Of a stretch of 64,000 nt of DNA, positions 7,198 through 55,119 are shown one piece after another (position 1 is the stretch's first letter; each line of letters starts with the position of its first letter). Under the pieces are notes generated by a model. It was given only the letters and a program-made list of their open reading frames with translations, was not told the DNA's origin and ran no database searches. The position numbers and the translations under genes are program-made. The DNA lies in assembly GCF_026151205.1 (NCBI RefSeq), contig NC_087074.1, positions 5,518,001 through 5,582,000 on the forward strand, in the 5' to 3' direction. The stretch is from Bolinopsis microptera (taxonomy: Eukaryota > Ctenophora > Tentaculata > Lobata > Bolinopsidae).

Positions 7198-10188
7198 TTA
7201 AGCTGTTACCGTAACGATGTGATGATTTTTACCAGGCTTTCTTCTAGAATTCTCCTTCACAGCACTTTCCCATTGAATAGCACTCCAGTAAAAAAAAGTC
7301 TGACACGTGTCCCTGAAATCCTCATATATTCCCCTGGTAGTGGTATCTTGCTTCATTTTGGATTGTAAAACCTCATATTTTCTCTCAATCTGAGATCTTA
7401 GCTCTAAGTTCTGACGATAAAGCTCAAGGAACCTTGGATTCTCCGAGTTTAACGTAACGGCCTGGTCAAGGTTAGGAAGTTCGGAGTAAAGAGCCTTAAT
7501 CTTCCTAACTCTCATCATCAGATGATTCAAGTTCTCTTCTCGGGACTCCCTTTCCTTATCTGTCCCGTTCATTGGCTCTACCATGGTCACGTGATGTGAT
7601 AATCCTTTACAACACACAATGCAAGCTTTAATGTCCTGAAGTCTGTAATTGAACTGCTCTGCTCTATAAACCGTTTTCCCGTCCATCGTGAACTTAGCAC
7701 CGTTATCACTCGTCACATCACAGAACTGGTTCCACAACGGTACAAAGTCGTTCTCTTGATTGCTGCTGTTGATGAGTTTCACTCTGTTGTTGGTGTGAAG
7801 AGAAGGGAGGGTGTTATGGCTAGAGGAATCAGGGTGAAGGTACCTGAAATATACCAGAAACACTACCCCTGACACAAGGTACAGAGCAATGGAACTGATG
7901 CCAATGTAGAAGGTAGGCGTGTCATGTGAGTGAGATAAGAAACACACCGCACTGACAACCACCAGCTCTGTCAAGTGGAGACAGTATATCAGAGCGAAAT
8001 GTCTCTCAGACCTCTGATGCTGGACGTGGGGATGTCCCTCCAGGAACTCTATGGGATGTCTCAGCATCACCACAAAGAACTCGCCCCACGAGAGAGCAAA
8101 AACTAGGAAGACCCTCTTGATCACTGAATGTAGAGGATTCCTGAGCTTTCTGTTGTAAAACTTACATCGGATGAAGTAGAGCACCGGGAAAGTCTTCTTC
8201 TGCGAAAGTCCGTAGAAAGGGTCGTATTCGAAGTGGTAAGAGAGAAGGTGAGAAAGGAACGTCAGTAGAATGTGAACACTGATGCATAGGGAGAAAAAGC
8301 TGTATCCACTGCCAGGACCATGGCTTTCCAAGAGGTGAAACAAAATGAGGCACATCATGGTTCTCGCTGTTATCATCGTAAAGTACCCTACATTCAGTGC
8401 TATCACCTGGGAAGATCGATCAAGGTCGGAGCAAATGGAGGGAGCGGCAGTACGACAGAGTTTCTCAAACTTAATCAGTGAAGATATCAGGGATATCACT
8501 GATATTACTGTCGTTATCAGTGTCAAGTAATCATCTGTCCGAGGAAATTGCCTTATTTCTCTCATGCTTGATATGTTCAGTGCCGAGATTGGTGGTGCCG
8601 CAAAAAGATTGTGATTGTAGTCCCTTATAGCTTTGTAAGTCTTGTAAATGACGAGAAGTTTTAAGAAAATGCACGGCACGTTTTCTAGGATTTTTGACTG
8701 TATGTTGAGTCTAGTAAAGTTGAACAATTTGCTCAAGATTGAGGGCATTTTCTGTGGTTTGTGGTATAGCATTTCAACAGCAGCAATGATTGGATGCATT
8801 TGAAGTATTGTCAAAATATTGAAGATCACGTGTTTGACAGAATCCCACTTCCAGTGAAACAAGTAGCTTGTGAACCTTCCCTGGCACTGTCCTTCAATTG
8901 ACACAATCTGGTCGGTATACAGCATCTGATGATTGCCCTTCTTGAACTGCTGATAAGATAACACATTGATGTAGACGAGAGGTGCAATTGAGAACACTAA
9001 CAGCAGATAACCCTCTTTATGTAAGGAAGTTTCACTATCAGTAATAGTGTTGTAACCAACAATCAGATCACCGAACAAGTCAGCTCCGTACACCAATATG
9101 AAGAACGCGAGAGTAAACTTACCTGAACTTGAAACGACTCTACATAGGTGTTTATCTTTATCACAACACAAATATTTCTTGACAATGGTAGCTGCAGCTC
9201 TACTTATATCCACGTTTGTATGAAAGTTTGCCAGGTCTTCAAGCTGCTTAGAGTGAGGTACTAGCAACTTCCTCATTTCGCGAGGATTGTTGCAGGTCAG
9301 GGCAGTAATGATCTGAAACAGAATCCGGTACTTTTGCTCCTCTGTTATGTTCTTTGATCTGATTAGAACGAACAAGCTGTCGATGAACGCTTTGTCCGTG
9401 AAATGTTCATGAAATAGATTATTTCCAAAGAGCAGACCCTCTATAATTCTGAGGTTCCTCTGAAAGAGCGATCCGTTTTCCTCAGTGGGGGTGGTTTCTA
9501 TGAGTATTTTCTGGAGAATAGCCGGGAGGTTGGTGACCCTACCATCTGGAAGTGTCACTTCACTAAATTTGAAGTTCGTCGTCCTCAGAGTGAGGTTACT
9601 GAGCGTCCAAAAGAGAGTTAACACAATTGATTTGTTGCTCTCCCACTTGTCTAGCAAAACCGTCATTTGGTCTAAAAATCCTGTTTCCACAAGGAATTTC
9701 CTGGTGGTGTTCCATTCTTTATCATGAGCAATGTTGTCGATAATAAACATCAGTCGAATCACCATCTTGTCATCCGACACCTTCTCAAGTCCTTTTAAGA
9801 GAGTGGGGACACCTTTCCTCAGTGCATCTGCACAAATCGGAGACTTGTCCGAAATTCCCGCGATTTTCCAGACAATGTATATGATATCTGCTTTGACAAA
9901 TTCTGGACAGTTCGCTGTGCCGTACAATTTGATCAATCTGGAGAATGTGTCCCCAGATGTTATACCCTGAACAACCTTTAATTGGTTCGCTCTGTCAAAA
10001 CTCCGTGCTGCATCTTTTTGGTACTTGAATATGTTCTTAAAAATTAAGGAAACTGTGCTAACCAACTTTGTTGGATCGGATATTCCTTGCAAGAGGAGTT
10101 TACTTGACTCAAGGTCTTTGGACATAATCCTGTACTTTGCTGGAAGTAGTTGTACATTTAGTACATATTTATAAACATAACTGATCAC
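7198..10188 (-). CDS. ARM-repeat plus XK-related membrane protein in one open frame
   Basis: A single 996-codon open frame. Residues about 25-345 are alpha-helical, ARM-like repeats (for example MVIRLMFIIDNIAHDKEWN). Residues about 355-800 are a polytopic membrane domain of the XK-related (XKR) type: FGDLIV in the first helices, KILENVPCIFLKLLVIYK at the family's conserved E..P position, then several further helices (SLCISVHILLTFLSHLLSYH, LSWGEFFVVMLRHPIEFLEG). Residues about 800-996 are soluble with a coiled-coil stretch. XKR proteins are plasma-membrane phospholipid scramblases or related proteins; some are caspase-activated. The upstream Met could be replaced by Met22 (base 10125). A perfect CAG|GTAAGT donor lies exactly at the domain junction (between 9123 and 9122), so an ARM-only spliced form is possible. 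Scramblase activity is inferred. Confidence 0.75.
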   Translation of the reverse strand: MISYVYKYVLNVQLLPAKYRIMSKDLESSKLLLQGISDPTKLVSTVSLIFKNIFKYQKDAARSFDRANQLKVVQGITSGDTFSRLIKLYGTANCPEFVKADIIYIVWKIAGISDKSPICADALRKGVPTLLKGLEKVSDDKMVIRLMFIIDNIAHDKEWNTTRKFLVETGFLDQMTVLLDKWESNKSIVLTLFWTLSNLTLRTTNFKFSEVTLPDGRVTNLPAILQKILIETTPTEENGSLFQRNLRIIEGLLFGNNLFHEHFTDKAFIDSLFVLIRSKNITEEQKYRILFQIITALTCNNPREMRKLLVPHSKQLEDLANFHTNVDISRAAATIVKKYLCCDKDKHLCRVVSSSGKFTLAFFILVYGADLFGDLIVGYNTITDSETSLHKEGYLLLVFSIAPLVYINVLSYQQFKKGNHQMLYTDQIVSIEGQCQGRFTSYLFHWKWDSVKHVIFNILTILQMHPIIAAVEMLYHKPQKMPSILSKLFNFTRLNIQSKILENVPCIFLKLLVIYKTYKAIRDYNHNLFAAPPISALNISSMREIRQFPRTDDYLTLITTVISVISLISSLIKFEKLCRTAAPSICSDLDRSSQVIALNVGYFTMITARTMMCLILFHLLESHGPGSGYSFFSLCISVHILLTFLSHLLSYHFEYDPFYGLSQKKTFPVLYFIRCKFYNRKLRNPLHSVIKRVFLVFALSWGEFFVVMLRHPIEFLEGHPHVQHQRSERHFALIYCLHLTELVVVSAVCFLSHSHDTPTFYIGISSIALYLVSGVVFLVYFRYLHPDSSSHNTLPSLHTNNRVKLINSSNQENDFVPLWNQFCDVTSDNGAKFTMDGKTVYRAEQFNYRLQDIKACIVCCKGLSHHVTMVEPMNGTDKERESREENLNHLMMRVRKIKALYSELPNLDQAVTLNSENPRFLELYRQNLELRSQIERKYEVLQSKMKQDTTTRGIYEDFRDTCQTFFYWSAIQWESAVKENSRRKPGKNHHIVTVTA

Positions 10189-13983: not shown

Positions 13984-14867
13984 TTGTATGAAGTATATAT
14001 TTTGTATACGGTGCTATAACGAAAACATTTTCTACTAGACTCCAGCCCAGGGTAATCCGATCCGGGTCATCACTCATCCTGGTAATTTTTCGACTCAATT
14101 TTCAATTTTCCCACTGACTTTGTAATTATAACCATAGTAGATAGGAATGTGTGAAGGCCAGTCATCAAGTGGCACCCAGCCACTCACAGCACGCCCTCAG
14201 GTCACGTGACAGCACGTCACAAGGGTCACGTGACAGATCACATGTCATGTAACCACGTGACAAGCTCGTTAATTAAATGTCAAGGTCACGTGACAAGATA
14301 ATTGACCAATGAGGAGCCAGAACGTCATGATGAATAAATTAATAATCCCGACTGAAGGATCTAAAGTCTGATTAAACGGTTGCCAAGCAGGTTCATGTTA
14401 TTTGAATGACGAATCAATCAATAATCCCGACTAAAGGATCTAAAGTCTGATTAAACGGTTTCCAAGCAGGTTCCTGTTACTTGATCACTGGTCACGTGTT
14501 AAGCTTAGGCATCATGTGACATGAATGTTATTTGATCCTCGAGATCACGTGACAGGAGTCACTTGATTACCCGTTAGAACGTCATGATGAATAATTCAAT
14601 AATCCTGTCTAAAGGATCTAAAGTCTGATTAAACGGCTGCCAAGCAGGCTCCTGTCACTTGATTACTGGTTAAATGATTCTTCACGATTTACCCCGGTCC
14701 AGTCACCACTCCAAATAAGCAGAGGGTGACATAACGAAATGTGGTGTAGGGTTACCATCGCTCGACCTCCTGGAAATTACAAGTCTTATCATCAATTTTC
14801 TGACATTTAAGCAATAGCTACAGTATCTGAACCACATTTTCACCCTTTAAGATATAACAACTGATAG

Positions 14868-14940
14868 GTAGCCTAGTGGTTAGAACATCCGTCTTCTGCA
14901 CAAAAGGTTCAGGGTTCAAAGTCGAGTCTAGGGAGTAGCT
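14868..14940 (+). other. tRNA-like (SINE-like) block in left arm
   Basis: Contains a good A-box-like GTAGCCTAGTGGTTAGAACA and, about 45 bp later, a weak B-box-like GGTTCAGGGTTCAAAGTC. It looks like a tRNA-derived promoter or SINE head and not a foldable tRNA. A mirror copy lies near 19765-19840 on the minus strand in the right arm. Confidence 0.4.
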
Positions 14941-15158
14941 AAGGCTCCATACCATTCACTATTATTAACTATTAAATTTGCTTGTTATAAATTTGATAAA
15001 TTTCGAGAGACAAATAAAGCTACCGTTTAATTGATAATTTGTTGTTGTCAACATTATAATCATAAATTGAAATCATCAAGAGTAAGATTGGGTACATAAA
15101 TCATTGTATAACAGTTGCACGTTAATGGTGTTCTAGTACAGGTATTTAGTTCCACCAA

Positions 15159-15848
15159 CTACTTATTCAGATAAAGTTTGAGAATCTTATCGACAATAGT
15201 TGTGTTTTCGTTCATCAGTTTGTTTACATCAGATAGACTTGTAGTGGTGATAACTGCATCCAATAGAGATCGTTCTTCCAAACTTAAAATATCTGTTAGG
15301 TCTTTTCCGCTGTCAATTAAACGCTGCTTCAAGACAACAAACAATTCGGTTTTCATCATGTATGAGAATAAAATGTCAAAACATTTATTTTGCTCTTTAC
15401 ACAATTTACTTTGTAACAGGACGTCTAGAGATTTAAGTAAACTCGATATCTTTTTACTGTTTGGTTGTTTGATTGGTACTCCTTTCCGCTTGCCTACGTG
15501 TTGCCAGTCAGTATCAGATTCTAACTCTTTAGCACTATATTCTTTGTTGGACTCATCATCGCTACTTGTTACACCACTAAATTCATCATCACCACTACCT
15601 GGTACATCAGAGTTAGAACCACCTTGCTGAGATTCTTCAGAAACTATTGTATCAGCATCTGAATATACAGAATCAGGACCCTCCATTTTGACATCAATCA
15701 CATCTGAGTTAGCTTTTGACAGCGGCTGTAGAATTGCAGAACTTTCATCCGACTTTCGGTTCTCTCGATGATACCTACTAATGTGTGAGTACAGACTATA
15801 TTTATTGACAAAAGACTTGTCACAGAATGAGCAGGTTACAGAATTCAT
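15159..15848 (-). CDS. C2H2 zinc-finger protein in left arm of giant-TIR element
   Basis: An intact 229-codon ORF. Residues 6-27 form one classical C2H2 finger (C6-x2-C9-x12-H22-x4-H27). Residues about 50-115 are acidic and Ser-rich. The C-terminal half is basic then helical (SLLKSLDVLLQ, LEERSLLDAVIT). It differs from the mirror copy at 18853-19542 at residue 32 (K here, E there) and residue 212 (M here, I there). A single finger plus acidic region suggests a DNA-binding or regulatory role, perhaps for the element itself; this is inference. I do not recognise the family. Its start lies just inside a minisatellite-flanked stretch, which may hold its promoter. Confidence 0.65.
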   Translation of the reverse strand: MNSVTCSFCDKSFVNKYSLYSHISRYHRENRKSDESSAILQPLSKANSDVIDVKMEGPDSVYSDADTIVSEESQQGGSNSDVPGSGDDEFSGVTSSDDESNKEYSAKELESDTDWQHVGKRKGVPIKQPNSKKISSLLKSLDVLLQSKLCKEQNKCFDILFSYMMKTELFVVLKQRLIDSGKDLTDILSLEERSLLDAVITTTSLSDVNKLMNENTTIVDKILKLYLNK

Positions 15849-15888
15849 AACTGCAGTACAAACGTTTTATAATGCTATGCAACAACCA

Positions 15889-16200
15889 TTATATAGCAAT
15901 AATCGCATAAAATCGCAAATAATCGCAAAATAATCGCATATAATAGCATATGATAGCATATAATAGCATAAAATAGCATAAAATTGCAAATAATCGCATA
16001 TAATTGCAAAATAATTGCATAAAATAGCATATAATAGCATATAATCGCATATAATCGCATATAATAGCATATAATAGCATATAATCACATTTAATCACAT
16101 ATATAATCACGTATATTATCTCTTAAAATCACATTTTATTATTTATACTCGCAAATAATTGCATATAATTGCAAATAATCGCATATAGTAGCAGGGTGAA
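15889..16200. repeat. 10-bp AT-rich minisatellite in left arm
   Basis: Degenerate tandem copies of GCATATAATA and variants (AATCGCATAT, AAATTGCATA), mirrored at about 18500-18812 in the right arm. It sits just upstream of each zinc-finger ORF start. Confidence 0.8.
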
Positions 16201-16719
16201 TATGATCCAACTTATGCATTCAACCTATTAAAGATCTTTTCAAAGATTTATTTTCATGCTGATTGCCAAGCATCATCCTGGAGATGGAACTGTAACTCTT
16301 GAGTCTACCAAAGACTGCACCCAACATGTAGGAATACTTCCTAGTGGGGACATTAAAGGACCACACCAGACAGGACAAGGAGATCATGGTAAATTCTACG
16401 TCAACTAGTCAGACGGAGATCATCTTCGAGATCTATCACTTTCTGGATTATCATTCATAACCAGTAGTCAGCGCACCATTGATTTCTGCTTTCAAATGAT
16501 AACTGCTAATACTTTTGTCGATTTTATTGCACAGAAACCAGCATTTGACCGGGACCGGGACCGGGATAGCTCAAAATTGCCAATCCCGGTCGATTACTGG
16601 TGCATGCAACTGACCAGGTTTAGGTATCAGGTGATTTTTCCTGCAATTTGGTAGTTGTGAAACATCACCTTGGATTTCTGTTGTCACAAAACGTACCTTT
16701 TTAGACCTTTTCTCAAAGC

Positions 16720-17290
16720 ATATAATAGCATATAATCGCATATAATCGCATATAATAGCATATAATGGCATATAATAGCATACAATAGCATATAATGGCA
16801 TATAATAGCATATAATAGCATATAATAGCATATAATAGCATATAATAGCATATAATAGCATATGATAGCATATAATAGCATATAATAGCATATAATAGCA
16901 TATAATAGCATATAATAGCATATAATAGCATATAATTGCATATAATAGCATATAATTGCATATAATTGCATATAATAGCATATAATTGCATATAATTGCA
17001 TATAATTGCATATAATTGCATATAATTGCATGTAATAATAACATACAATCGCATTCGGTAGACTCAAGAATTACAGTTCAATCGCCAGCATATAATCGCA
17101 TATAATAGCATATAATATCATATAATCGCATATAATAACATTATATAATATCATGTAATCGCATATGATAGCTTATAATAGCATATAATAGCATATATAA
17201 TCGCATTCGGTAGACTCAAGAGTTATAGTAACATCTCCAACATATATTCATATAATTGCATATAATAGCATATAACATCTTATAATCGCA
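16720..17290. repeat. 10-bp GCATATAATA minisatellite array in spacer
   Basis: More than 30 tandem copies from 16720 to 17040, then looser arrays to 17290 broken by copies of a GGTAGACTCAAGA block that also occurs in the arms. All frames are open on the minus strand only because of the repeat. A shorter array of the same unit is at 17880-17980 next to the right arm. Confidence 0.85.
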
Positions 17291-17371
17291 TTTAAATGAA
17301 TACCAATGGTCGTTGCGTTTAAATAGATAAAATTAAATGTTTTAAAAGAGCGATCCATCTGGAGAAGTAGG

Positions 17372-17455
17372 CTAGGCGGGATTTGAACCCGCATTGTCCT
17401 GCATAGGAAAGTTGCCGTTAACTCACTAACCTGAGGCTCCAGATGGACCGCTGTT
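17372..17455 (-). other. tRNA-like sequence with perfect T-arm
   Basis: On the minus strand GCGGGTTCAAATCCCGC forms a perfect 5-bp T-stem and loop with a B-box, and GGTTAGTGAG resembles an A-box. The 7-bp acceptor stem does not pair properly. Instead a longer outer stem (CCATCTGGAG facing CTCCAGATGG) encloses the unit. Better seen as a tRNA-derived relic than a working tRNA. Confidence 0.4.
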
Positions 17456-17554
17456 AAAATGAAAATATGAACATGTTTAACAAGATCGTTACGAATATCA
17501 CGTGACGGATGCTTTTATGACGTACTTGCTTCTTATTGGTCAATTAATTGCTAT

Positions 17555-17632
17555 GTGGCACAGTTCGTTAGTCTGCCTGCTTGTGAAATGCCTCGCATTC
17601 ACAGGGTCCCGGGTTCGATTCCCGTCTGTGCC
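17555..17632 (+). other. tRNA-like sequence, degenerate
   Basis: GGCACAG at the start pairs with CTGTGCC at the end as a 7-bp acceptor stem, and GGGTTCGATTCCCG gives a B-box and near-complete T-stem. The D and anticodon arms do not fold into the usual 7-base loop, and no anticodon can be named with confidence. It may be a tRNA pseudogene or SINE head. Confidence 0.4.
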
Positions 17633-17774
17633 ACTAGCTATGGGGAGAGCATCTGAATTTTCCAAGAATCTATTCATGTGGAGTGTGGCACACCACAACA
17701 AAGGTGCATTCTTCCTAGATCAAGAGAACCGTGAGGAGTATGGTATGAGGTGATGTTGTATTGAGTTACATTGT

Positions 17775-17860
17775 CGGGGGGTCAATTGTCGAGGTGTCAA
17801 TCGTCGGGGGGTTAATTGTCGGGGGTCAACTGTCGGGGGACAATTTTCGCCCACCCAATG
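17775..17860 (+). repeat. GTCGGGGG short tandem repeats
   Basis: Five or so imperfect copies of a 16-18 bp unit of the type TCAATTGTCGGGGGG, just before the right-hand minisatellite. Non-coding. Confidence 0.65.
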
Positions 17861-18852
17861 GATTATATATGTGATCGAATGATATTACATGCGATTATAT
17901 GCGATTATATGCTATTATATGCTATTATATGCTATTATATGCTATTATATGTGATTTTATGCTATTATATGCTATTATATGCTTTGAGAAAAGGTCTAAA
18001 AAGGTACGTTTTGTGACAACAGAAATCCAAGGTGATGTTTCACAACTACCAAATTGCAGGAAAAATCACCTGATACCTAAACCTGGCCAGTTGCATGCAC
18101 CAGTAATCGACCGGGATTGACAATTTTGAGCTATTCCCGGTCCCGGTCCCGGTCAAATGCTGGTTTCTGTGCAATAAAATCGACAAGAGTATTAGCAGTT
18201 ATCATTTGAAAGCAGAAATCAATGGTGCGCCGACTACTGGTTATGAATGATAATCCAGAAAGTGATAGATCTCGAAGATGATCTCCGTCTGACTAGTTGA
18301 CGTAGAATTTACCATGATCTCCTTGTCCTGTCTGGTGTGGTCCTTTAATGTCCCCACTAGGAAGTATTCCTACATGTTGGGTGCAGTCTTTGGTAGACTC
18401 AAGAGTTACAGTTCCATCTCCAGGATGATGCTTGGCAATCAGCATGAAAATAAATCTTTGAAAAGATCTTTAATAGGTTGAATGCATAAGTTGGATCATA
18501 TTCACCCTGCTACTATATGCGATTATTTGCAATTATATGCAATTATTTGCGAGTATAAATAATAAAATGTGATTTTAAGAGATAATATACGTGATTATAT
18601 ATGTGATTAAATGTGATTATATGCTATTATATGCTATTATATGCGATTATATGCGATTATATGCTATTATATGCTATTTTATGCAATTATTTTGCAATTA
18701 TATGCGATTATTTGCAATTTTATGCTATTATATGCTATTATATGCTATCATATGCGATTATATGCGATTATTTTGCGATTATTTGCGATTTTATGCGATT
18801 ATTGCTATATAATGGTTGTTGCATAGCATTATAAAACGTTTGTACTGCAGTT

Positions 18853-19542
18853 ATGAATTCTGTAACCTGCTCATTCTGTGACAAGTCTTTTGTCAATAAA
18901 TATAGTCTGTACTCACACATTAGTAGGTATCATCGAGAGAACCGAGAGTCGGATGAAAGTTCTGCAATTCTACAGCCGCTGTCAAAAGCTAACTCAGATG
19001 TGATTGATGTCAAAATGGAGGGTCCTGATTCTGTATATTCAGATGCTGATACAATAGTTTCTGAAGAATCTCAGCAAGGTGGTTCTAACTCTGATGTACC
19101 AGGTAGTGGTGATGATGAATTTAGTGGTGTAACAAGTAGCGATGATGAGTCCAACAAAGAATATAGTGCTAAAGAGTTAGAATCTGATACTGACTGGCAA
19201 CACGTAGGCAAGCGGAAAGGAGTACCAATCAAACAACCAAACAGTAAAAAGATATCGAGTTTACTTAAATCTCTAGACGTCCTGTTACAAAGTAAATTGT
19301 GTAAAGAGCAAAATAAATGTTTTGACATTTTATTCTCATACATGATGAAAACCGAATTGTTTGTTGTCTTGAAGCAGCGTTTAATTGACAGCGGAAAAGA
19401 CCTAACAGATATTTTAAGTTTGGAAGAACGATCTCTATTGGATGCAGTTATCACCACTACAAGTCTATCTGATGTAAACAAACTGATAAACGAAAACACA
19501 ACTATTGTCGATAAGATTCTCAAACTTTATCTGAATAAGTAG
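18853..19542 (+). CDS. C2H2 zinc-finger protein in right arm of giant-TIR element
   Basis: The mirror-image copy of the ORF at 15159-15848, 229 codons and intact, with the same C-x2-C-x12-H-x4-H finger at residues 6-27, acidic middle and helical C-terminus. Only two residue differences were found between the copies (E32 and I212 here). The two genes converge outward: each start codon faces the central spacer and each stop lies towards an end of the element. That both frames stay open suggests selection, gene conversion between arms, or very recent duplication. No family recognised beyond the zinc finger. Confidence 0.65.
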   Translation: MNSVTCSFCDKSFVNKYSLYSHISRYHRENRESDESSAILQPLSKANSDVIDVKMEGPDSVYSDADTIVSEESQQGGSNSDVPGSGDDEFSGVTSSDDESNKEYSAKELESDTDWQHVGKRKGVPIKQPNSKKISSLLKSLDVLLQSKLCKEQNKCFDILFSYMMKTELFVVLKQRLIDSGKDLTDILSLEERSLLDAVITTTSLSDVNKLINENTTIVDKILKLYLNK

Positions 19543-20571
19543 TTGGTGGAACTAAATACCTGTACTAGAACACCATTAACGTGCAACTGTTATACAATGA
19601 TTTATGTACCCAATCTTACTCTTGATGATTTCAATTTATGATTATAATGTTGACAACAACAAATTATCAATTAAACGGTAGCTTTATTTGTCTCTCGAAA
19701 TTTATCAAATTTATAACAAGCAAATTTAATAGTTAATAATAGTGAATGGTATGGAGCCTTAGCTACTCCCTAGACTCGACTTTGAACCCTGAACCTTTTG
19801 TGCAGAAGACGGATGTTCTAACCACTAGGCTACCTATCAGTTGTTATATCTTAAAGGGTGAAAATGTGGTTCAGATACTGTAGCTATTGCTTAAATGTCA
19901 GAAAATTGATGATAAGACTTGTAATTTCCAGGAGGTCGAGCGATGGTAACCCTACACCACATTTCGTTATGTCACCCTCTGCTTATTTGGAGTGGTGACT
20001 GGACCGGGGTAAATCGTGAAGAATCATTTAACCAGTAATCAAGTGACAGGAGCCTGCTTGGCAGCCGTTTAATCAGACTTTAGATCCTTTAGACAGGATT
20101 ATTGAATTATTCATCATGACGTTCTGACGGGTAATCAAGTGACTCCTGTCACGTGATCTCGAGGATCAAATAACATTCATGTCACATGATGCCTAAGCTA
20201 AACACGTGACCAGTGATCAAGTAACAGGAACCTGCTTGGAAACCGTTTAATCAGACTTTAGATCCTTTAGTCGGGATTATTGATTGATTCGTCATTCAAA
20301 TAACATGAACCTGCTTGGCAACCGTTTAATCAGACTTTAGATCCTTCAGTCGGGATTATTAATTTATTCATCATGACGTTCTGGCTCCTCATTGGTCAAT
20401 TATCTTGTCACGTGACCTTGACATTTAATTAACGAGCTTGTCACGTGGTTACATGACATGTGATCTGTCACGTGACCCTTGTGACGTGCTGTCACGTGAC
20501 CTGAGGGCGTGCTGTGAGTGGCTGGGTGCCACTTGATGACTGGCCTTCACACATTCCTATCTACTAACCAT

Positions 20572-21978
20572 TATTACTATGTATTATTATTAAGTGTCAA
20601 CCCTACCAGCAACTGCAAACCTCAATCCGGCAACGCCTGAAAAATATTGCATGCCGTATAACACTTGTCTATTGGTATTGTTATTGGACTAACCCCGAGA
20701 AGAAAGTGGCTATACTTCGAAGAAATTTAGACTGGTAACATTTGTCAAATTGCTGTATAAACTTCTTTCAAACTTCGTGAATCGAGATACAAATCTTTTG
20801 CGATGTATTCATAATCAATACATGCACTTATACAAATCACTTGGAATACTTTTGAAAGAATTTGACAAGCTCAAAAGCGCCATGAGTCCGAGAGGCTGTA
20901 GATGAAAATGAATGGAATCTTATCGTGTTAATGCTGCTGTACCTGCAGAGCTGCCAAGAGGTCGAAGATATGTAACTTTCACCTTACAGAATCCAAAACT
21001 CTCTTATGTCTCACTTATTTGACACCACTTGTCGGCTTCGGTCAATTGAAATTGAACGAGTGGTCCTTTTCGTTCCCTTTGGAGGCACCACTAGAAAGAC
21101 TTCTTTGCGAGTTCAAAGACTCTGGCTACGTGACTCGGTGGAGGCTCTTTCTATATGAAAGCTTCAGTAAGAATATTTGTATGCCTATAATTTCATTACA
21201 TGGCTACTAAATGGCTACTAAATAGTGTAAATACACTATATCAGTATATCTGTCAAATGAGTTCAGTTCGTATTCAACTGCACTTTGAATTCCTTTAAAA
21301 ACTTTTAATGGACCATTAACAGATCAAAGTGTAGTAGAGTTCAACTACCATACTATCAGTTACATCTTGATGCAAGTTAGTAAGGTATCTTGATGCACGC
21401 AAACTACAGTGAAATTCGTTTTTGGACTGCCTTATTTAACTTGAACAGTGAAAAATTTTAATTTAATTTAAATTTATCACAGATCATAGTAACAGACTGA
21501 AGTGTAGCACAGTTTACCTACCACACTATAAGTTATATCTTGATGCAATTGCAAGCTAGTAAGGTATCTTGATGCACGCAAACTACAGTGAAATTCTTTT
21601 TTGGACTGCATTGTTTAACTTGAACAGTGACAAATTTTATTTTAATTTAAATTTATCACAGATCATAGTAACAGACTGAAGTGTAGCACAGTTTAACTAC
21701 ACTTAAACTACGAGACTACAGATATATCCTGATACAAGTAAGCAGAAAAGGAGGAATGTCGAGACCAAACATTTTGAGCACAGCTGTCCTTATATAGCTG
21801 CTTCACTTCCAGTTAACTAACATTCAGTTCTCTTGAAGTTCAAGTTCTAATTTGTTTAAGACTCTGGGACGATATTTCAACGAATCGTTATTTTTTTCAT
21901 GACTCTCGCCCAGACTGTATCAATTTAAGGCACCCGCTCCCTTCTTTGATTTACGATAATGATCGTGAACAAAATTAG
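20572..21978. other. Gap between giant-TIR element and neuropeptide exon
   Basis: No complete gene seen. 20640-21200 has coding-like fragments that I cannot assign. 21318-21720 holds about two and a half tandem units of roughly 160-180 bp (landmark ACAGATCATAGTAACAGACT at 21479 and 21658). The stretch from 21700 to 21978 resembles 23000-23250 and ends in the presumed splice acceptor of the neuropeptide exon. A signal-peptide exon should lie here or further upstream, but I could not identify it. Confidence 0.5.
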
Positions 21979-22718
21979 AGTCTGGTATCCAACAAATTTT
22001 AGATCTTGGAAAACGATCAGCTGAACCCCAGCAGAACAGTGAACCATTTGTTGATTTTGGAAAACGATCAGCTGAACCCCAGCAGAACGGTGAACCATTT
22101 GTTGATTTTGGAAAACGATCAGCTGAACCCCAGCAGAACGGTGAACCATTTGTTGATTTTGGAAAACGATCAGCTGAACCCCAGCAGAACGGTGAACCAT
22201 TTGTTGATTTTGGAAAACGATCAGCTGAACCCCAGCAGAACGGTGAACCATTTGTTGATTTTGGAAAACGATCAGCTGAACCCCAGCAGAACGGTGAACC
22301 ATTTGTTGATTTTGGAAAACGATCAGCTGAACCCCAGCAGAACGGTGAACCATTTGTTGATTTTGGAAAACGATCAGCTGAACCCCAGCAGAACGGTGAA
22401 CCATTTGTTGATTTTGGAAAACGATCAGCTGAACCCCAGCAGAACGGTGAACCATTTGTTGATTTTGGAAAACGATCAGCTGAACCCCAGCAGAACGGTG
22501 AACCATTTGTTGATTTTGGAAAACGATCAGCTGAACCCCAGCAGAACGGTGAACCATTTGTTGATTTTGGAAAACGATCAGCTGAACCCCAGCAGAACGG
22601 TGAACCATTTGTTGATTTTGGAAAACGATCAGCTGAACCCCAGCAGAACGGTGAACCATTTGTTGATTTTGGAAAACGATCAGCTGAACCCCAGTATTGG
22701 CTGGAAACGCAGGGGTAA
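21979..22718 (+). CDS. Neuropeptide precursor exon: 13 copies of an amidated peptide
   Basis: In one plus-strand frame the 51-bp tandem repeat translates as SAEPQQNGEPFVDFGKR, 17 residues, repeated 13 times from 22008 (the first copy has NSE in place of NGE). Every unit ends in GKR: Gly as amide donor and Lys-Arg as prohormone-convertase site. Expected products end in PFVDF-amide. In-unit cleavage after Pro could expose Gln for pyroglutamate formation, as is common in cnidarian precursors. An extra LDLGKR precedes the array, and SAEPQYWLETQG then TAA (22716-22718) follows it. The frame has an upstream TGA at 21966, so it must be joined to a 5' exon; AAAATTAG before 21979 is the likely acceptor (phase 1). 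The signal-peptide exon was not found. No Met occurs in this frame. The other open frames of the repeat have no such processing logic. Confidence 0.75.
22008..22695 (+). repeat. 51-bp coding tandem repeat
   Basis: Thirteen and a half near-perfect 51-bp units; GKR codons start at 22008 and recur every 51 bases to 22671. The extreme DNA identity between units points to recent unequal exchange or replication slippage within the coding exon. Copy number could therefore vary between individuals or be miscounted in assembly. Confidence 0.9.
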
Positions 22719-22728
22719 GGTGTGAGAC

Positions 22729-22875
22729 GATCACGAGTGAATTTCGTTGAATGACCATAGGTTTAAAAAGTTGCATTGAATATTGAATTTTATTTCTCTT
22801 AGATCACGAGTGAATTTCGTTGAATGACCATAGGTTTAAAAAGTTGCATTGAATATTGAGTTTTATTTCTCTTAG
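22729..22875. repeat. 73-bp tandem duplication after the neuropeptide exon
   Basis: Two nearly identical adjacent copies beginning ATCACGAGTGAATTTCGTTG and ending TTTCTCTTAG. Each end looks like a splice acceptor, so it may be a duplicated 3' intron or UTR segment. Confidence 0.7.
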
Positions 22876-22920
22876 ATGTGCAAAATATTGCAATTTACTT
22901 TATATCAAAAATGAAACATA

Positions 22921-23002
22921 CTCCTATCTATGTACCTCTTATCGAGGTTCATAGATGAGATAATAGTTTAGAAACTATTATCTTATCTATGTACCTCGAT
23001 AA
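22921..23002. repeat. Hairpin of about 38-bp arms
   Basis: TATGTACCTCTTATCGAGGT and its continuation face an inverted copy containing TATGTACCTCGATAAGAG, with a small loop around TTTAGAAAC. Non-coding. Confidence 0.65.
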
Positions 23003-23004
23003 GA

Positions 23005-23245
23005 GTACAGTGTAGCACAGTTTAACTACGGGACTACTATATCTTGAGACAAGTAAGTAAACAAGGAGTAATGTTGAAACTAAATCCGTTAAATTCAGCC
23101 ATTTCTTACAGCTCCTCCGACCTCAAGTTTACTAACAGTAACATTCAGTTCTCTTTAATAGTCTCTGGGACTCTCGCCCAGACTATACCCATTGAAGGCA
23201 TCTGCTCATTCTTTAATTTAAGGTTATTATCGTTAACAAAACTAT
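23005..23245 (+). repeat. Second copy of the region upstream of the neuropeptide exon
   Basis: Matches 21700-21990 in order: GTGTAGCACAGTTTAACTAC, then a donor-like ACAAGTAAG, ACATTCAGTTCTCTT, ACTCTCGCCCAGACT and a run of T/C-rich sequence. The copy stops at about 23247 where dispersed repeat C begins, just before the point where the neuropeptide exon would start. It looks like a duplicated and truncated paralogue. Confidence 0.55.
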
Positions 23246-31424: not shown

Positions 31425-31880
31425 ATCACCGGCTGTAACCAGTATCTCCCGCCCACTGCTGGTTCATTACCGGCTGTAACCAGTATCTCCCACCCACTGC
31501 TGGTTCATTACCGGCTGTAACCAGTATCTCCCACCCACTGCTGGTTCATTACCGGCTGTAACCAGTATCTCCCACCCACTGCTGGTTCATTACCGGCTGT
31601 AACCAGTATCTCCCACCCACTGCTGGTTCATTACCGGCTGTAACCAGTATCTCCCACCCACTGCTGGTTCATTACCGGCTGTAACCAGTATCTCCCACCC
31701 ACTGCTGGTTCATTACCGGCTGTAACCAGTATCTCCCACCCACTGCTGGTTCATTACCGGCTGTAACCAGTATCTCCCACCCACTGCTGGTTCATTACCG
31801 GCTGTAACCAGTATCTCCCACCCACTGCTGGTTCATTACCGGCTGTAACCAGTATCTCCCACCCACTGCCGGTTCATGAC
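31425..31880. repeat. 41-bp minisatellite
   Basis: About eleven near-perfect units containing CCGGCTGTAACCAGTATCTC and CCACTGCTGGTTC. The period is not a multiple of three, and each unit can form a hairpin through AACCAGT facing ACTGCTGGTT. Non-coding. Confidence 0.9.
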
Positions 31881-32464
31881 CCTCGTTAGAACTATAATAT
31901 TCGACAGTATGAAACTTTCACCGACTGATTACTAATGTTATTTGCTGTTACTATAAACAAAATTGCACGAATAAGTTTAGCGACCACTGCAGGAAACTTA
32001 ATAAGCGGGAAAATGAGCACAGAACGATATCACAGAAAACTTGAAAGTGTAGAAAGTAACGTAAAAAAGCTACGTAAAGGGTAGGGCAATGAGGAATAAG
32101 TGAGTTGAGACGCCGAGAGAGCGGTATTACAGTGTGGTATTACTCCCCGTATTACGTCAAATTATAAGATTTAGGAATATCTAAGGATTGATGCAATGTG
32201 TAGCGAAATTAAACATTGGAATGATGTCCACTGTCCAGGTCTTCGTTAAAACTGCGGCAAGGACAGATTGCCAGGTTTTAATTAAGCGGATAGACGTAGG
32301 AGATAATTAAAATGGTAAGCTGCCAGTGGCCGGACGGGTAGGGGAATACCTGTGTGAACATTATGAGATAATTAAATAGTTTATTACATCCGATTTTCTT
32401 TGCAAGAATGCTCTGTCAAGAGGTCACGCTTTAGTTCACAACATTCCAACATTTCTTGGATTCT

Positions 32465-36800: not shown

Positions 36801-38857
36801 TTAGCATACAGATTATTACACAGTGAGCCTATCAAGTTACCTTGCGTGCTGGAGGGAGAGGCGTTGTGAGGATTTGAGAAGAAGTTATCAAAAGCTTCTC
36901 TGTTTCCACTGGTCGTCCTCTCAATCACTTCCTGGAGAGATAACAGGTCAGAGAGATGAGAGGTTACATTATACTGCACGTGCGGTATGTACGCAGTACG
37001 CAGTGTACGCGGTGTATGCTGCTTACTAGTGATGTGGAGTAATACAGCTCTAATTAAGCTAGTGAGTTGGGTATTTAAGACTGTAGACGCAAACCATCAG
37101 AACTCTCATTACAGAGTGTGGTTTAAGAGGCGACTATTAGACGACTATTAGGCGACTATTAGGCGACTATTACGGGGGGGGGGGGGGGGGGGGGGGGGAT
37201 CATACACTCAGTATCGTACGTGACGTTGGGGGGTGGGTCATATTTTCTTCCAAAACACAGTTAGTACATGCTGCTTATTAATATGGGAGTTTCAGGGATC
37301 GCTTTGAAATTGATCACGGAAATAGTGAATCAAACTTCTAAGACTAGCCAGTAGCCAACTTCAGATATAAAAACAATAGACTGGTCTAAACTTGATCCTG
37401 AGTATTTTCCTCGTGTGCGTGACTAAACAACATGATGCTGAACTTTTACTGCATTGAAATAGAACTGCACGTAAAATTGGAAGCGACCGTCTTTAACTCA
37501 ACCATCAAGATACATAAATCGAAATATTAGAGGTCTAAATTACAAAAAAATTGTTTGAATCCACCGAATTATGTGCCGAATATTGTGCAGGGCACTATCA
37601 TGTGCAGGATATGCTAACCCCGCCCTAACCCTGGTAAGTAAGCTAACCCCGCCCTAACCTTGCTAAGTAATGCTAACCTCGCCCCTGGTAAGTAAGCTAA
37701 CCTCGCCCCTGGTAAGTAAGCTAACCCCGCCCTAACCCTGCTAAGTAAGCTAACCCTGCCCTAACCCTGCTAAGTAAGCTAACCCCGCCCTAACCCTGCT
37801 AAGTAAGCTAACCCCGCCCTAACCCTGCTAAGTAAGCTAACCTCGCCCTTACCCTGCTAAGTAATGCTAACCCCGCCCTAACCCTGCTAAGTAAGCTAAC
37901 CCCGCCCTAACCCTGGTAAGTAATGCTAACCCCGCCCCTGCTAAGTAAGCTAACCCGCCCTAACCCTGCTGAGTAAGCTAACCCCGCCCTAACCCTGCTA
38001 AGTAAGCTAACCCCGCCCTAACCCTGCTAAGTAAGCTAACCCCGCCCTAGCCCCTAACCTGCTAGTAAGCTAACCCCGCCCTAACCCTGCTAAGTAAGCT
38101 AACCTCGCCCTAACCCTGCTAAGTAAGCTAACCCCGCCCTAACCCTGCTAAGTAAGCTAACCTCGCCCCTGCTAACCCTGCTAAGTAATGCTAACCCCGC
38201 CCTAACCCTGCTAAGTAAGCTAACCCCGCCCTAACCCTGCTAAGTAAGCTAACCCCGCCCTAGCCCCTAACCCTGCTAAGTAAGCTAACCCCGCCCTAAC
38301 CCTGCTAAGTAAGCTAACCCCGCCCTAACCCTGCTAAGTAAGCTAACCCCGCCCTAACCCTGCTAAGTAAGCTAACCCCGCCCTAACGGCTAACCCTGCT
38401 TAGTAAGCTAACCTCGTTGTCGTACAGGACAGGTATCAGGTTCTGTAGAGCGATGTTCACTGCAGGTACAGTATTTATACTGTGTCTACAGGCTGGACAC
38501 CTGAATAGAGAGAGATAATGTACTACAATGTACATTGTAAATGTACTGGAGATTTATTGTATCAGATACATTGTAGATACACCCTAGCAACTTCCAATTT
38601 GGGTGTCCCTGAGATGCTAAAGTTTGTCAAAGCTTTGATCGCAGCTTTCGGATAAAAATATTATATTTTTGGCTCAAAATTTAAAAAAAGAGGTATAAAG
38701 TATCTCACGAGAATCTGGATCTGTCAGCAGCCCAGAGATTAGAGAGGCAATCTCTACAGAAACTGTGCCCACAGGTTAGGGTGGTGGGCTCGTGTAACAA
38801 CTCCAGACATATCGTACATTCTAGATCCTTCCTGTAGCTCGATTCCTGGTCACTGTC
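33803..38857 (-). CDS. BFAR: BFAR-like RING-finger multi-pass membrane protein
   Basis: Minus-strand exons found: 38857-38709 (RING first half, CTICLELLHEPTTLTCGHSF), 38500-38413 (CPACRHSINTVPAVNIALQN), 36931-36841, 36051-35993 (short hydrophobic, less sure), 35725-35671, 35551-35414 (RRTLIFLLVGAIQCPRFLG and a second hydrophobic run), 34626-34454, 34261-34189 and 33997-33803 (stop at 33805-33803). Most junctions are phase-consistent; the join between 35993 and 35725 is not, so an exon is missing there. C3HC4 RING followed by several membrane helices matches bifunctional apoptosis regulator, an ER ubiquitin ligase that restrains apoptosis. The SAM domain expected between RING and helices was not seen. 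A possible first coding exon is 39357-39316 (Met, 14 codons, phase 0), or the gene may join the PH exons upstream. Confidence 0.65.
37174..37198 (+). repeat. 25-bp poly-G tract
   Basis: Uninterrupted G run following three copies of GGCGACTATTA, inside an intron of the BFAR-like gene (so poly-C in its transcript). Confidence 0.85.
37612..38410. repeat. 29-bp minisatellite with CCCTAACCC motif
   Basis: About 27 units of the form GCTAACCCCGCCC, then TAACCCTGCTAAGTAA, with some shortened units. It lies in the intron between the second RING exon and the 36931-36841 exon and runs right up to the splice donor at 38412. CCCTAACCC resembles telomeric repeat, but the array is not a telomere. Confidence 0.9.
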
Positions 38858-47333: not shown

Positions 47334-50300
47334 TTACTGCAATTTAAAATTGTTTGGATTCCAAGTATCTTTTAAATCAGCAGCCTGTACTTGTAATAAT
47401 AGTGCCTTGGTTCTCAATTTTATCAAGTTAATGGAAGTTTCTAGGCAATTGCTTGAGGTTAGAATTTTTTTATGAACAGTGTTCCAAAGCTTGGCTGCAG
47501 TGAACAAAAAAGTATTTGATTTATTAAGAAGAATAACCGTTAAACTCGTTGTACGGTTTGAAATGTTGATGGCCTCATAAAGGGAGTATGGGCAGTGGTA
47601 CTTGATAATCTTAGAGAATTCTGAAATGCAATGGTACTTGAACAAGTTTTGAACTGTAAGAATTTTAAGTCTATTAAAAATGGGTTTTGTATGCTCCTTT
47701 TCAAAATGTTTATGGCCTAATCTTTGCATACCATATGGTCTAGTTCTTGCACATGTTGATTGTTTATCTAGATATGAGTCGAGATCACCAAAAAGGATCC
47801 TTATACAGTGCTTCTGAGTGATAAAAAGACTGTCATTGGACCGTTCCTTGATGACAACACCCCAAACACTTATACCATAACTGAGATGTGATTCAAAAAG
47901 AGCATTATATATTTTCAAGTATAGTTCAGCAGGTATAAAGTGCCGGATTCTACAGATTGCACCAGTCATGGTCCGCAGCTTTTTACGGATGTAGTGCATG
48001 TGGGCAGACCAGTTTAGCTTACTATCTATAACAACACCTAAGAATTTGGTATCCTTGACTTTAGTGATAACCTTACCATCGATGAATATTGATCTAGATT
48101 CATCTAGCAGGTTAGCAAATGGTCTAGTCCGCGCACAGGTGTCATCATATTCAGAGGCAGGTTTAAAATGTATGTAGCAGCATTTGGACATGTTGATATG
48201 AAGTAGATTACATTTCATGTAAATCGAGACATGTTTAAGGGGGGGGGGCCAATGGATATTTTTTTGTGAAACTTGATTTCGAGATAGTAGTTGACCAACA
48301 AACTAAGACCAGTGACCGAACTTTTGAGGGGGTCCCGGACCCCAACCGCCAAACGGTGCGCGCAGGGCAGCCACGCCCATATTTGGTCCAAATTAGGCCC
48401 AATTTAGCTAAATACCCTGAACATGCCCAAAACCAAGGTTTATGGTGCTCTACTTGTAGCTAGTGGTCTCCTGAACTCGTATATGAAATTTCATCAAGAT
48501 TGGACGAAAAATGACTGAGTTATGAGCCAAAAACCATATGCCCATATTTGGGCATACGCACCAAATTTGGTAGATTTCGGCCCATAAATTGGTCAAATAT
48601 CAATATTTTTGAATGAAACTTACTTTATATGAAAGGTAAGCCTAAACTACATATTATCTGTAAGTTATAGCTTTATATCTGTTTAAATGTGGATACTAAG
48701 GCGAAAAAGCCACAAAAAATGAACTAAATTGCCCATATCTCGGTTCGCGATATTTGCGGAATTGATCTCATTAAAATTGTAACAACTCAATCAGTTTTCA
48801 AAATTTTTGCATGAAATTTTCGGAATCGACTCGAAATTGCATTTCCACCTTATTTTAAATACGGATTTTTGATTTAGGCCTCCAAAAAAATTTGGCGGCC
48901 AAATTCCAAAATTATCTCACAAAAATTCAGAATTTGGCCGCCAAATTTTTTTGGAGGCCTAAATCAAAAATCCGTATTTAAAATAAGGTGGAAATGCGAT
49001 TTCGAGTCGATTCCGAAAATTTCATGCACAAATTTTGAAAACTGATTGAGTTGTTACAATTTTAATGAGATCAATTCCGCAAATATCGCGAACCGAGATA
49101 TGGGCAATTTAGTTCATTTTTTGTGGCTTTTTCGCCTTAGTATCCACATTTAAACAGATATAAAGCTATAACTTACAGATAATATGTAGTTTAGGCTTAC
49201 CTTTCATATAAAGTAATTTTCATTCAAAAATATTGATATTTGACCAATTTATGGGCCGAAATCTACCAAATTTGGTGCGTATGCCCAAATATGGGCATAT
49301 GGTTTTTGGCTCATAACTCAGTCATTTTTTGTCCAATCTTGATGAAATTTCATATACGAGTTCAGGAGACCACTAGCTACAAGTAGAGCACCATAAACCT
49401 TGGTTTTGGGCATGTTCAGGGTATTTGGCTAAATTGGGCCTAATTTGGACCAATTATGGGCGTGGCTGCCATGCGCGCTCCGTTTGGCGGTTGGGGTCCG
49501 GGACCCCCTCAAAAGTTCGGTCACTGGTCTTAGTTTGTTGGTCAATTGCTATCTCGAAATCAAGTTTCACAAAAAAATACCCATTGGCCCCCCCCCTTAA
49601 GTACTAAGTTGGCTTTTTTATATGTTGCTTCTCTAGATGGTCCTGATATGAAGATATTAGTGTCATCAGCATAAAGTACAAATTTCACCTCACTGTCTGA
49701 AAAACAGTTTACTATATCGTTCATATACAGTAGGAAGAGTAGTGGCCCAAGAATTGACCCTTGTGGTACTCCAAATTTCACGTCCATTGTTACTGATGGT
49801 ACATCGTTATACATAACATACTGCTTTCTGTTAGTCAAATAGCTTTTAAGTAAGGTAAGTGCTGAACCCCTAATACCGTAGGAATTTAACTTGCTTAGAA
49901 GAATATTGTGATCAAGGGTGTCAAAGGCTTTGCTCAAGTCAATGAATATGCCCAATACATGTTTATTGCTAGCCAGAGACTTTGTAACGGAGTCTATAGA
50001 TTTGTGTAGAGCATGAGTGGTAGAATGGCCTTTTCTAAATCCAAACTGTGAGTCTGTTAGTACACCTTTAGATGTGAAGAAATTATAAAGGCGTTTGTAA
50101 ATGATCTTCTCAAAGATTTTTCCAAATAAAGGTAATATTGATACAGGCCGATAATTTTCAATGCATTCCTTATTGTCTTTCTTGTAAATAGGAATAACTT
50201 TACCAGTTTTAAATATACTTGGGAATGTACCACTTTGTATACATGTGTTGTAAAGCCTGGCCAAGGTACCAGCAATGAGCTTTGTCGATTTTTTTACAAC

Positions 50301-54127: not shown

Positions 54128-55119
54128 AATTAGGATTGTAGAATTTATTGTATACCTTTTAGTGCAGTGGAGGTAGCAGTGTGGTGCATTAATAGAATGA
54201 CAGCCTACTAATTTAGAGTTGTTTTTAAGTGAGCATAATGGGTATTTTTTTGGACCTAAAGGTTTAAGTATGGCAACTTTAAAATTGGTTCTTTTAATCG
54301 TTTATTAAATATCAGTTTAAAAATATATAAATCTGGAATCTGTTCACACTGTGAACCAGTCCTATAAAAATTTCAAAAATCCTCTTAAATTAAATATTAA
54401 AAACGTCTCAATAATGGAAATAGTCATACAATTAATAAATCTACCAAATTCTTAATATATACCTAAGAGAAAAAATACCTACCTAAGTCAATGTCTACCT
54501 GTAATACACTAAATATTAGGTTAAATACATAGGTGGTGGAGTCAGCACACATTTACCAAAATCAAAAATTTGTTTTATTTTTTATAGGAGGAACCTGTTA
54601 GATGGGCCGACAACACTGGATTAAATTTGATTTTGATGAAGGGGATTGTTTTCAAATGATAGCTGCACTTCTAGTTAGTTTCGTGAGCTACACATATTTT
54701 GATGTTTGCATTTTTCAATATTTCTACTAGACAGTGCAAACATATTAATTTGTAATTTAGTATAACAAGTTTTAAAGTTTGACATGCGTTAGAATTTATA
54801 TTTTGATTGCTTTTTCAAATTTGCTTGTGTCATGGATTCAATTGAGCAAAACGTTAATTTTTTGATCCAGCTCGTAGTTTTAACTTCGATCTTTAAAAAG
54901 TAAAAGTGTTGTTGCAAGAACAAAAATCAAATTATCAGACTTTACTGTTATGTTTACTGGGTTTATCGGCACAAGGCAAATTATGTTAGAAGGGTTAAAA
55001 ACCCAGCATGATCATGAAATAAATTATAGTATATTGCAGTAATTTTGTGTTGCTAAGTTAATTACAACATTGGATCGAGCCGTGCAACTAGCTAGTTGAA
55101 GGTAAAGATTCAACAAAAT

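What the first reader, a model, noticed from the sequence alone, without database searches (positions are those of the whole stretch)
21979..22718. Neuropeptide precursor hidden in a 51-bp tandem repeat
One frame of the repeat reads SAEPQQNGEPFVDFGKR thirteen times, each unit ending in Gly-Lys-Arg, the amidation plus dibasic-cleavage signal of peptide prohormones. The frame has no Met, so ATG-based ORF calling reports only two meaningless frames of the same repeat. The predicted C-terminus, PFVDF-amide, is not one of the well-known cnidarian or bilaterian amide families that I recall (RFamide, LWamide, PRPamide, RYamide). It could be an undescribed peptide family.
Basis: partly seen in the sequence, partly recalled or inferred. 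Interest (0 to 1): 0.9.

Follow-up and report, generated by a model that had tools for sequence, protein, structure and literature searches.

The report
Headless copy of comb-jelly peptide gene
The repeat is a copy, missing its start, of a gene from a family that appears to encode small secreted, amidated signalling peptides in what looks like a comb jelly; this copy probably no longer works, but complete sister genes lie elsewhere in the same genome.

Summary
The array is real: 13 in-frame SAEPQQN(G/S)EPFVDFGKR units, 14 GKR sites and a stop. The window lies in a 264.65-Mb genome whose statistics fit the ctenophore Bolinopsis microptera. The same genome has 18 loci with one near-identical leader, MTKVFCFLLVLGLIALTQC, running in one frame into SAEP-linked payloads: 15 of 18 have Gly-[Lys/Arg]-Arg, 5 of 18 encode EPFVDF units. 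Other cores are QPPGL, QENGGAYSDY, QQNGDLNLLNI and QQNGEEFVDF. The leader is constrained as protein: 0 of 38 codon-position-1/2 columns vary among 14 genes, against 75 of 241 flank columns (P 2.4e-6). So frame and peptide-precursor reading are supported. The window copy is headless: a deletion at 22006/22007 joins upstream flank to a repeat unit; about 370 bp, the ATG and the signal peptide are missing. No upstream signal exon was found. Databases gave no homologue with this leader; the papers searched lack the motifs. Expression, processing and neural function are inferred; the PAM search did not complete.

The parts
20984..22006 (+). 5' flank shared with leader-bearing copies at C5 (L009) and C10 (L011), including a 179-bp tandem duplication
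   Evidence: longest blastn pieces 92.7-95% identity to L009 and 90-95% to L011; TRF 21327-21700
22006..22007 (+). Deletion junction: upstream flank ...ATTTTAGATCT fused to ...TGGAAAACGATCAGCTG inside a repeat unit; about 370 bp of flank/5' leader plus ATG and signal peptide are missing
   Evidence: L009 and L011 continue from GATCT for 373 and 384 bp to the ATG; sequences
21969..22718 (+). Open frame without Met, 249 codons plus TAA: 14 GKR sites, 13 SAEPQQN(G/S)EPFVDFGKR units
22002..22694 (+). 51-bp tandem array, 13.6 copies, 99% matches
22729..22877 (+). 3' untranslated-type element, here duplicated (73 bp x 2); present once in L009 and L012 as read
22910..22915 (+). Position of the polyadenylation-type hexamer: AATGAA here and in the interrupted copies L009 and L011; AATAAA in the other 17 of 20 rows matched
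22803..23240 (+). 3' flank 99% identical to C5:2157281-2157718 and 98% to C10:1096061-1096498

Best explanation
The array is a 5'-truncated, probably dead copy of a multigene family of secreted multi-copy amidated-peptide precursors in an animal that fits the ctenophore Bolinopsis microptera. Shown: leader-bearing copies consist of a near-identical stretch (about 50 bp before the ATG plus a 19- to 20-residue signal peptide), a variable payload, usually tandem repeats, in the same uninterrupted frame, a stop and, in 15 of 18, a shared 3' element; most payload units read core-Gly-[Lys/Arg]-Arg-Ser-Ala-[Glu/Asp]-Pro; in the window a deletion removed leader and signal. Inferred: the signal peptide sends the precursor to the secretory pathway, convertases cut after KR/RR, a carboxypeptidase trims the basic residues, PAM turns the Gly into an amide, and trimming of Ser-Ala and Glu-Pro exposes Gln, which cyclises to pGlu. 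Predicted products: pQQNGEPFVDF-amide, pQPPGL-amide, pQENGGAYSDY-amide, pQQNGDLNLLNI-amide and pQQNGEEFVDF-amide, most likely acting as neuropeptides or peptide hormones.
For: 18 leader loci by protein search, each an ORF of 37-300 residues headed by the leader; 15 of 18 contain G[KR]R, 10 of 18 FVDFG[KR]R; 79 of 92 dibasic-SA[ED] sites are preceded by Gly, and 80 of 92 SA[ED] are followed by Pro-Gln (71) or Leu-Gln (9). Independently of the leader search, 13 of 18 places found with the repeat carry the leader. Leader codon positions 1 and 2 are invariant in 14 genes (0 of 38 columns) while 75 of 241 flank columns vary, P 2.4e-6. Cores differ while the linker is kept: PFVDF, EEFVDF, AYSDY, LNLLNI, PPGL. 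The leader is strongly hydrophobic around residues 4-14. Shared 3' element. Window truncation. Ctenophore PAM genes have the domains needed for amidation and are expressed in Mnemiopsis peptidergic clusters, and amidated peptides of B. mikado were found by mass spectrometry (PMC9525235; sections 6 and 19 and passages read).
Against: No transcript or peptide data were available. Selection on the payload was not tested; third positions in the leader are not more conserved than flank (2 of 11 fourfold columns variable, P 0.29). Three of 18 leader genes (L042, L043, L045) lack G[KR]R. L009 is interrupted by an insertion of about 1 kb and L011 by a frameshift, so some leader-bearing copies are damaged too, and two more leader copies are decayed (L050, L051). 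Two exact patterns built from B. mikado peptides (NRVWY-G-dibasic, GTRRWF-G-dibasic) gave 0 matches in this genome, and NRVWYG gave 3 against 2 for the reversed control, none convincing, so known ctenophore neuropeptides were not recovered as a positive control. The search for PAM in this genome did not complete (8 tries).
Confidence: 0.77

Rival explanations
1. Same precursors, but the products are not neural: secreted defence, venom, tentacle-glue or mucus peptides. A fixed leader with a rapidly changing payload is also the layout of toxin and skin-peptide families (recalled).
For: Conserved leader with variable cores, many copies on several contigs, dead copies; by inspection the cores differ mostly by amino-acid-changing substitutions (not counted).
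Against: The main cores are short, mostly acidic or neutral and without Cys, unlike typical cationic antimicrobial or disulphide-rich toxins (recalled); Gly-basic plus an N-terminal Gln is the layout described for cnidarian and placozoan pGlu-amides (PMC9545775 passages).
Confidence: 0.28
2. The window locus is itself a working gene: a distant signal-peptide exon is spliced onto the array.
For: The array is open for 249 codons with its GKR sites intact.
Against: Relatives have the signal in one frame with the payload; the junction at 22006/22007 is a deletion against L009 and L011; no leader match on C3 among 21 and none of four leader motifs found in the window; a recently homogenised array can stay open without selection; the hexamer is AATGAA as in the other interrupted copies.
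Confidence: 0.06
3. The 51-bp array is only satellite DNA; the frame is a coincidence of a repeat divisible by three.
For: Four of six frames are stop-free; headless copies with broken frames exist (L013, L014, L023).
Against: The SAEP frame is the one joined to ATG and signal peptide at 13 of 18 repeat places; leader codon positions 1 and 2 are constrained; divergent cores keep frame and linker.
Confidence: 0.04
4. A true gastrin/cholecystokinin relative outside Bilateria.
For: Pfam Gastrin scores E 1.8e-24 on the window frame, 2.1e-25 on L010, 4.9e-9 on L017, 3.4e-7 on the shorter L010 gene, 2.7e-5 on L018 and 0.0077 on L016; shared DFG[KR]RSAE with recalled vertebrate precursors; F-V-D-F against W-M-D-F.
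Against: The best stretch covers only 9-11 of 127 profile positions, no stretch passes on its own, and the score grows with repeat number; the four members given that have one FVDF unit and no array (L015, L020, L021, L046) show no Gastrin match up to E 10. Sibling cores such as LNLLNI and PPGL bear no resemblance. [quoted passage not shown]
Confidence: 0.03

Closest known systems
Amidated neuropeptides of the ctenophore Bolinopsis mikado (NPWa, FGLa, RWFa, VWYa, WTGa, NVFa/NIFa and others; PMC9525235)
   Same: Same genus as the inferred species; short amidated peptides from signal-peptide-bearing precursors.
   Different: None of the peptide names or antigens in the text parts read resembles FVDF, QPPGL, AYSDY or LNLLNI; the supplementary tables could not be read, so absence there is not shown.
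Cnidarian and placozoan pGlu-amide precursors (Antho-RFamide pQGRFamide; placozoan pQPPRWamide; PMC9545775, passages)
   Same: Many copies per precursor, Gly-basic amidation signal, N-terminal Gln for pGlu; QPPGL is close in style to QPPRW.
   Different: There an acidic residue or Asn directly precedes Gln; here the spacer after the dibasic site is Ser-Ala-Glu/Asp-Pro. No sequence homology shown.
Gastrin/cholecystokinin (Pfam PF00918)
   Same: DF-amide C-terminus followed by G-basic-Arg-Ser-Ala-Glu (vertebrate motif recalled).
   Different: Only about 9 residues match; members without an array give no match; leader and repeats unrelated.
Families with a conserved leader and hypervariable payload (conotoxins, frog skin peptides; recalled)
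   Same: Fixed signal peptide, changing mature part, many paralogues.
   Different: Payload is mostly Cys-free tandem repeats with dibasic linkers.
Yeast alpha-factor and fungal KEX2-processed repeat proteins (recalled; PMC9769878 seen in a search listing only)
   Same: Tandem peptides with dibasic sites and short dipeptide spacers.
   Different: Amidation Gly present here; animal-type genome.

Membership tests
Amidated multi-copy peptide precursor (prohormone) | N-terminal signal peptide in frame with the repeats | tested here: met
   13 of 18 repeat places; 18 of 18 leader loci by construction of the search; the window copy itself does not meet it
Amidated multi-copy peptide precursor (prohormone) | Gly followed by dibasic cleavage sites flanking each peptide | tested here: met
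   15 of 18 genes; 79 of 92 dibasic-SA[ED] sites preceded by Gly
Amidated multi-copy peptide precursor (prohormone) | Amidating enzyme in the same organism | tested here: inconclusive
   Own-genome search for PF03712 unanswered; PAM in ctenophores reported in PMC9525235 (passage)
Neuropeptide | Expression in neurons and release of the mature peptide | not testable with these tools
   no RNA or peptidomic data
Gastrin/cholecystokinin | Homology over the precursor beyond the C-terminal motif | tested here: not met
   9-11 of 127 profile positions; no match for four members without an array
Known B. mikado neuropeptides | Same mature sequence | tested here: inconclusive
   no match among names and antigens in the main-text parts read; supplementary lists not readable
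Intact gene (window copy) | Start codon and signal peptide present | tested here: not met
   no Met in frame, deletion junction, no leader motif in window

The most novel reading that the evidence does not exclude
A lobate ctenophore carries a young, fast-diversifying peptide-signalling repertoire: one leader cassette in front of exchanged amidated cores on many chromosomes, with mosaic arrays that mix cores through their identical linkers, so that new ligands arise by core replacement while processing sites stay fixed; one branch has arrived at an FVDF-amide end resembling gastrin/CCK by convergence.
Probability: 0.3. Interest if true: 0.8.

Novelty: new member of a known kind. Interest (0 to 1): 0.58.

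Why it matters
[quoted passage not shown] A family of 18 leader-bearing loci with predicted amidated peptides not found in the papers and databases searched would add testable ligands. Arrays in which linker and leader stay while cores change also offer a view of how new peptide ligands arise. The window copy alone matters little: it looks dead.

Tried and rejected
Splice from an upstream signal exon: rejected, see the junction evidence. Gastrin/CCK homology: rejected as repeat-inflated. Extra conservation of silent sites in the leader (suspected): not supported, 2 of 11 fourfold columns vary against 75 of 241 flank columns, P 0.29. Leader as a mobile module: 18 loci share roughly -50 to +62 around the ATG while upstream sequence falls into three groups; recombination, or old divergence with constraint, both fit; undecided. 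Transposon capture: 5' and 3' flanks share short direct repeats (71-81% identity) and pieces of the 3' flank occur elsewhere, but I identified no element ends or target duplications. Protein homologues: 8 hits to the 300-aa precursor at E 4.9e-12 to 1.1e-3 and 27-45% identity; the seven read share the GKR[SED]AEP-type linker but not this leader, the eighth is labelled as from the spider Oedothorax gibbosus. Alignment A1 (13 of the 18 leader genes) gave none at E 0.01 or better; in both searches only about 8000 word-sharing candidates were scored. NCBIfam with two members, viral contigs (5 pattern stretches, none a relative), prokaryote genomes (11, none) and PDB sequences with one member: no relative.

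Full report
What was checked. The array is at 22002-22694, 51-bp period, 13.6 copies, 99% matches. In the frame open from 21969 to 22718 it reads 13 units SAEPQQN(G/S)EPFVDFGKR, with 14 GKR in total, between TKLESGIQQILDLGKR and SAEPQYWLETQG-stop. There is no Met. Because 51 is divisible by three, four of the six frames of the unit are stop-free, so the open frame by itself says little.

Which animal. The own-genome tool places the window at G000:C3:5518001-5582000 of a 264,652,675-base genome in 232 contigs. Eight contig lengths were seen (C1, C2, C5, C7, C10-C13), from 15.2 to 26.2 Mb; C1 is 26,206,493 and C11 20,825,282 bases. A table in PMC11797021 (passages read) lists Bolinopsis microptera with 265 Mb, 13 chromosomes, largest 26.2 Mb, N50 20.8 Mb and GC 38.5%; the DNA fetched here has GC 38.3%. 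The table gives 346 scaffolds against 232 contigs here, so the assembly version may differ. The species is an inference from these numbers: the genome carries no name, and two exact patterns for known B. mikado peptides gave no match, so there is no independent positive control.

The family. Searching with the repeat found 91 matches, which I group into 18 places on eight contigs; counts are lower bounds by the tool's own note. Fifteen 10-kb regions read around them showed genes in which an ATG and signal peptide run straight into the repeats. Searching with the leader found 18 loci, each an ORF of 37 to 300 residues headed by the leader. Thirteen of the 18 repeat places have the leader; five do not: the window, C5:13099464, C10:11945123, C10:11958951 and C10:12022642. 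A DNA search with the leader gave 21 matches, the extra three being two decayed copies and a 5' fragment in front of the headless array at C10:12022642. Of the 18 leader genes, 15 have G[KR]R, 10 an FVDFG[KR]R unit and 5 an EPFVDF unit; 79 of 92 dibasic-SA[ED] sites are preceded by Gly; 80 of 92 SA[ED] are followed by Pro-Gln (71) or, in one gene, Leu-Gln (9). Distinct cores are QQNGEPFVDF, QQNGEEFVDF, QENGGAYSDY, QQNGDLNLLNI and QPPGL. Arrays can be mosaic: L009 (after its insertion) and L017 mix QPPGL and PFVDF units, and L018 mixes AYSDY with one EEFVDF. L042, L043 and L045 have no amidation site.

Evidence of coding constraint. Among the 14 leader genes that share one type of upstream flank, none of 38 codon-position-1 or -2 columns of the signal sequence varies, while 75 of 241 flank columns do; a hypergeometric test gives 2.4e-6. 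It treats columns as independent. Fourfold sites (2 of 11 variable) are compatible with flank (P 0.29), so the leader is conserved as protein, not unusually as DNA. The four genes with other flanks (L017, L018, L045, L046) were left out of this test; across groups some position-1 and -2 differences occur (15 and 45 of 1121 compared). A 3' element lies downstream of 15 of the 18 leader genes, in L045 some 2.4 kb away, and was not matched for the two L010 genes and L042. Among the 20 rows matched for its hexamer, 17 have AATAAA and 3 have AATGAA, namely the window, L009 and L011.

The window copy is headless. Its 5' flank (20984-22006) is 92.7-95% identical to L009 and 90-95% to L011 in the longest pieces, and its 3' flank is 98-99% identical to both. 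In those copies the flank continues from ATTTTAGATCT for 373 and 384 bp to the ATG; in the window it jumps at 22006/22007 into the middle of a repeat unit. ATG and signal peptide are gone, and with them any QPPGL units such as L009 and L011 have. No leader match lies on C3 and none of four leader motifs was seen in the window. An assembly artefact at the junction cannot be excluded without reads. The closest relatives are themselves damaged: L009 has an insertion of about 1 kb in its array and L011 a frameshift.

How it most likely works. In the leader-bearing genes the signal peptide would direct secretion; cleavage after KR/RR, removal of basic residues and PAM action on Gly give C-terminal amides. 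The spacer Ser-Ala-Glu-Pro consists of X-Ala and X-Pro dipeptides, the kind removed by dipeptidyl peptidases (recalled; a role for dipeptidyl aminopeptidase in sea-anemone precursors appears in a reference title in PMC9545775). That would leave Gln, prone to pGlu. These steps are inferred. PMC9525235 (sections 6 and 19 and passages read) reports amidated peptides and PAM in ctenophores and acidic as well as basic cleavage sites, so cleavage at Glu would be an alternative to dipeptide trimming.

Comparison with what is known. Pfam Gastrin scores strongly on long arrays, but only through 9-11 of 127 profile positions repeated many times; four members without an array give nothing. The resemblance DFG[KR]RSAE plus F-V for W-M is worth recording but is not homology evidence. 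A search of about 5.8 billion proteins with the 300-residue precursor returned eight hits (E 4.9e-12 to 1.1e-3, 27-45% identity); the seven read share the GKR-AEP type of linker but not the leader, and the eighth is labelled as a spider protein. An alignment of 13 of the 18 leader genes returned none. Text searches for the motifs gave two unrelated papers each. The 2021 Mnemiopsis neuropeptide paper and the 2014 Pleurobrachia genome paper are not held, and supplementary tables could not be read, so earlier prediction of some members is possible.

Verdict. The family is new to the sources searched; the kind of gene is known.

Noticed in passing
window 14327-20374: Large inverted repeat: near-identical 235-aa C2H2 zinc-finger-like frames at 15159-15866 (-) and 18835-19542 (+), 79-bp tandem pairs at both outer ends, 10-bp arrays inside and a tRNA-like Rfam hit at 17368-17432. 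Possible foldback element or palindrome.
   Followed up: no
window 49560-54301 (-): LINE-like pair of frames: reverse transcriptase and a frame with a 2OG-Fe(II) oxygenase domain.
   Followed up: no
window 7198-10188 (-): 996-aa single frame without Pfam or PDB-sequence match; only three relatives, at 92, 63 and 40% identity, among the candidates scored in the protein database. By eye it looks multi-membrane-spanning.
   Followed up: partly
L023 4158-5733: Another array, SADLQSFQGRRGKR, where the leader region is cut before the ATG: an independent headless copy.
   Followed up: partly
L019 and L022: Copies on C7 and C13 share about 6.2 kb at 96.5% identity, a recent inter-chromosomal duplication or assembly duplication.
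   Followed up: no
window 31428-31881 and 37613-38387: Other well-preserved tandem arrays (41-bp unit, 11.1 copies; 29-bp unit, 26.6 copies).
   Followed up: no
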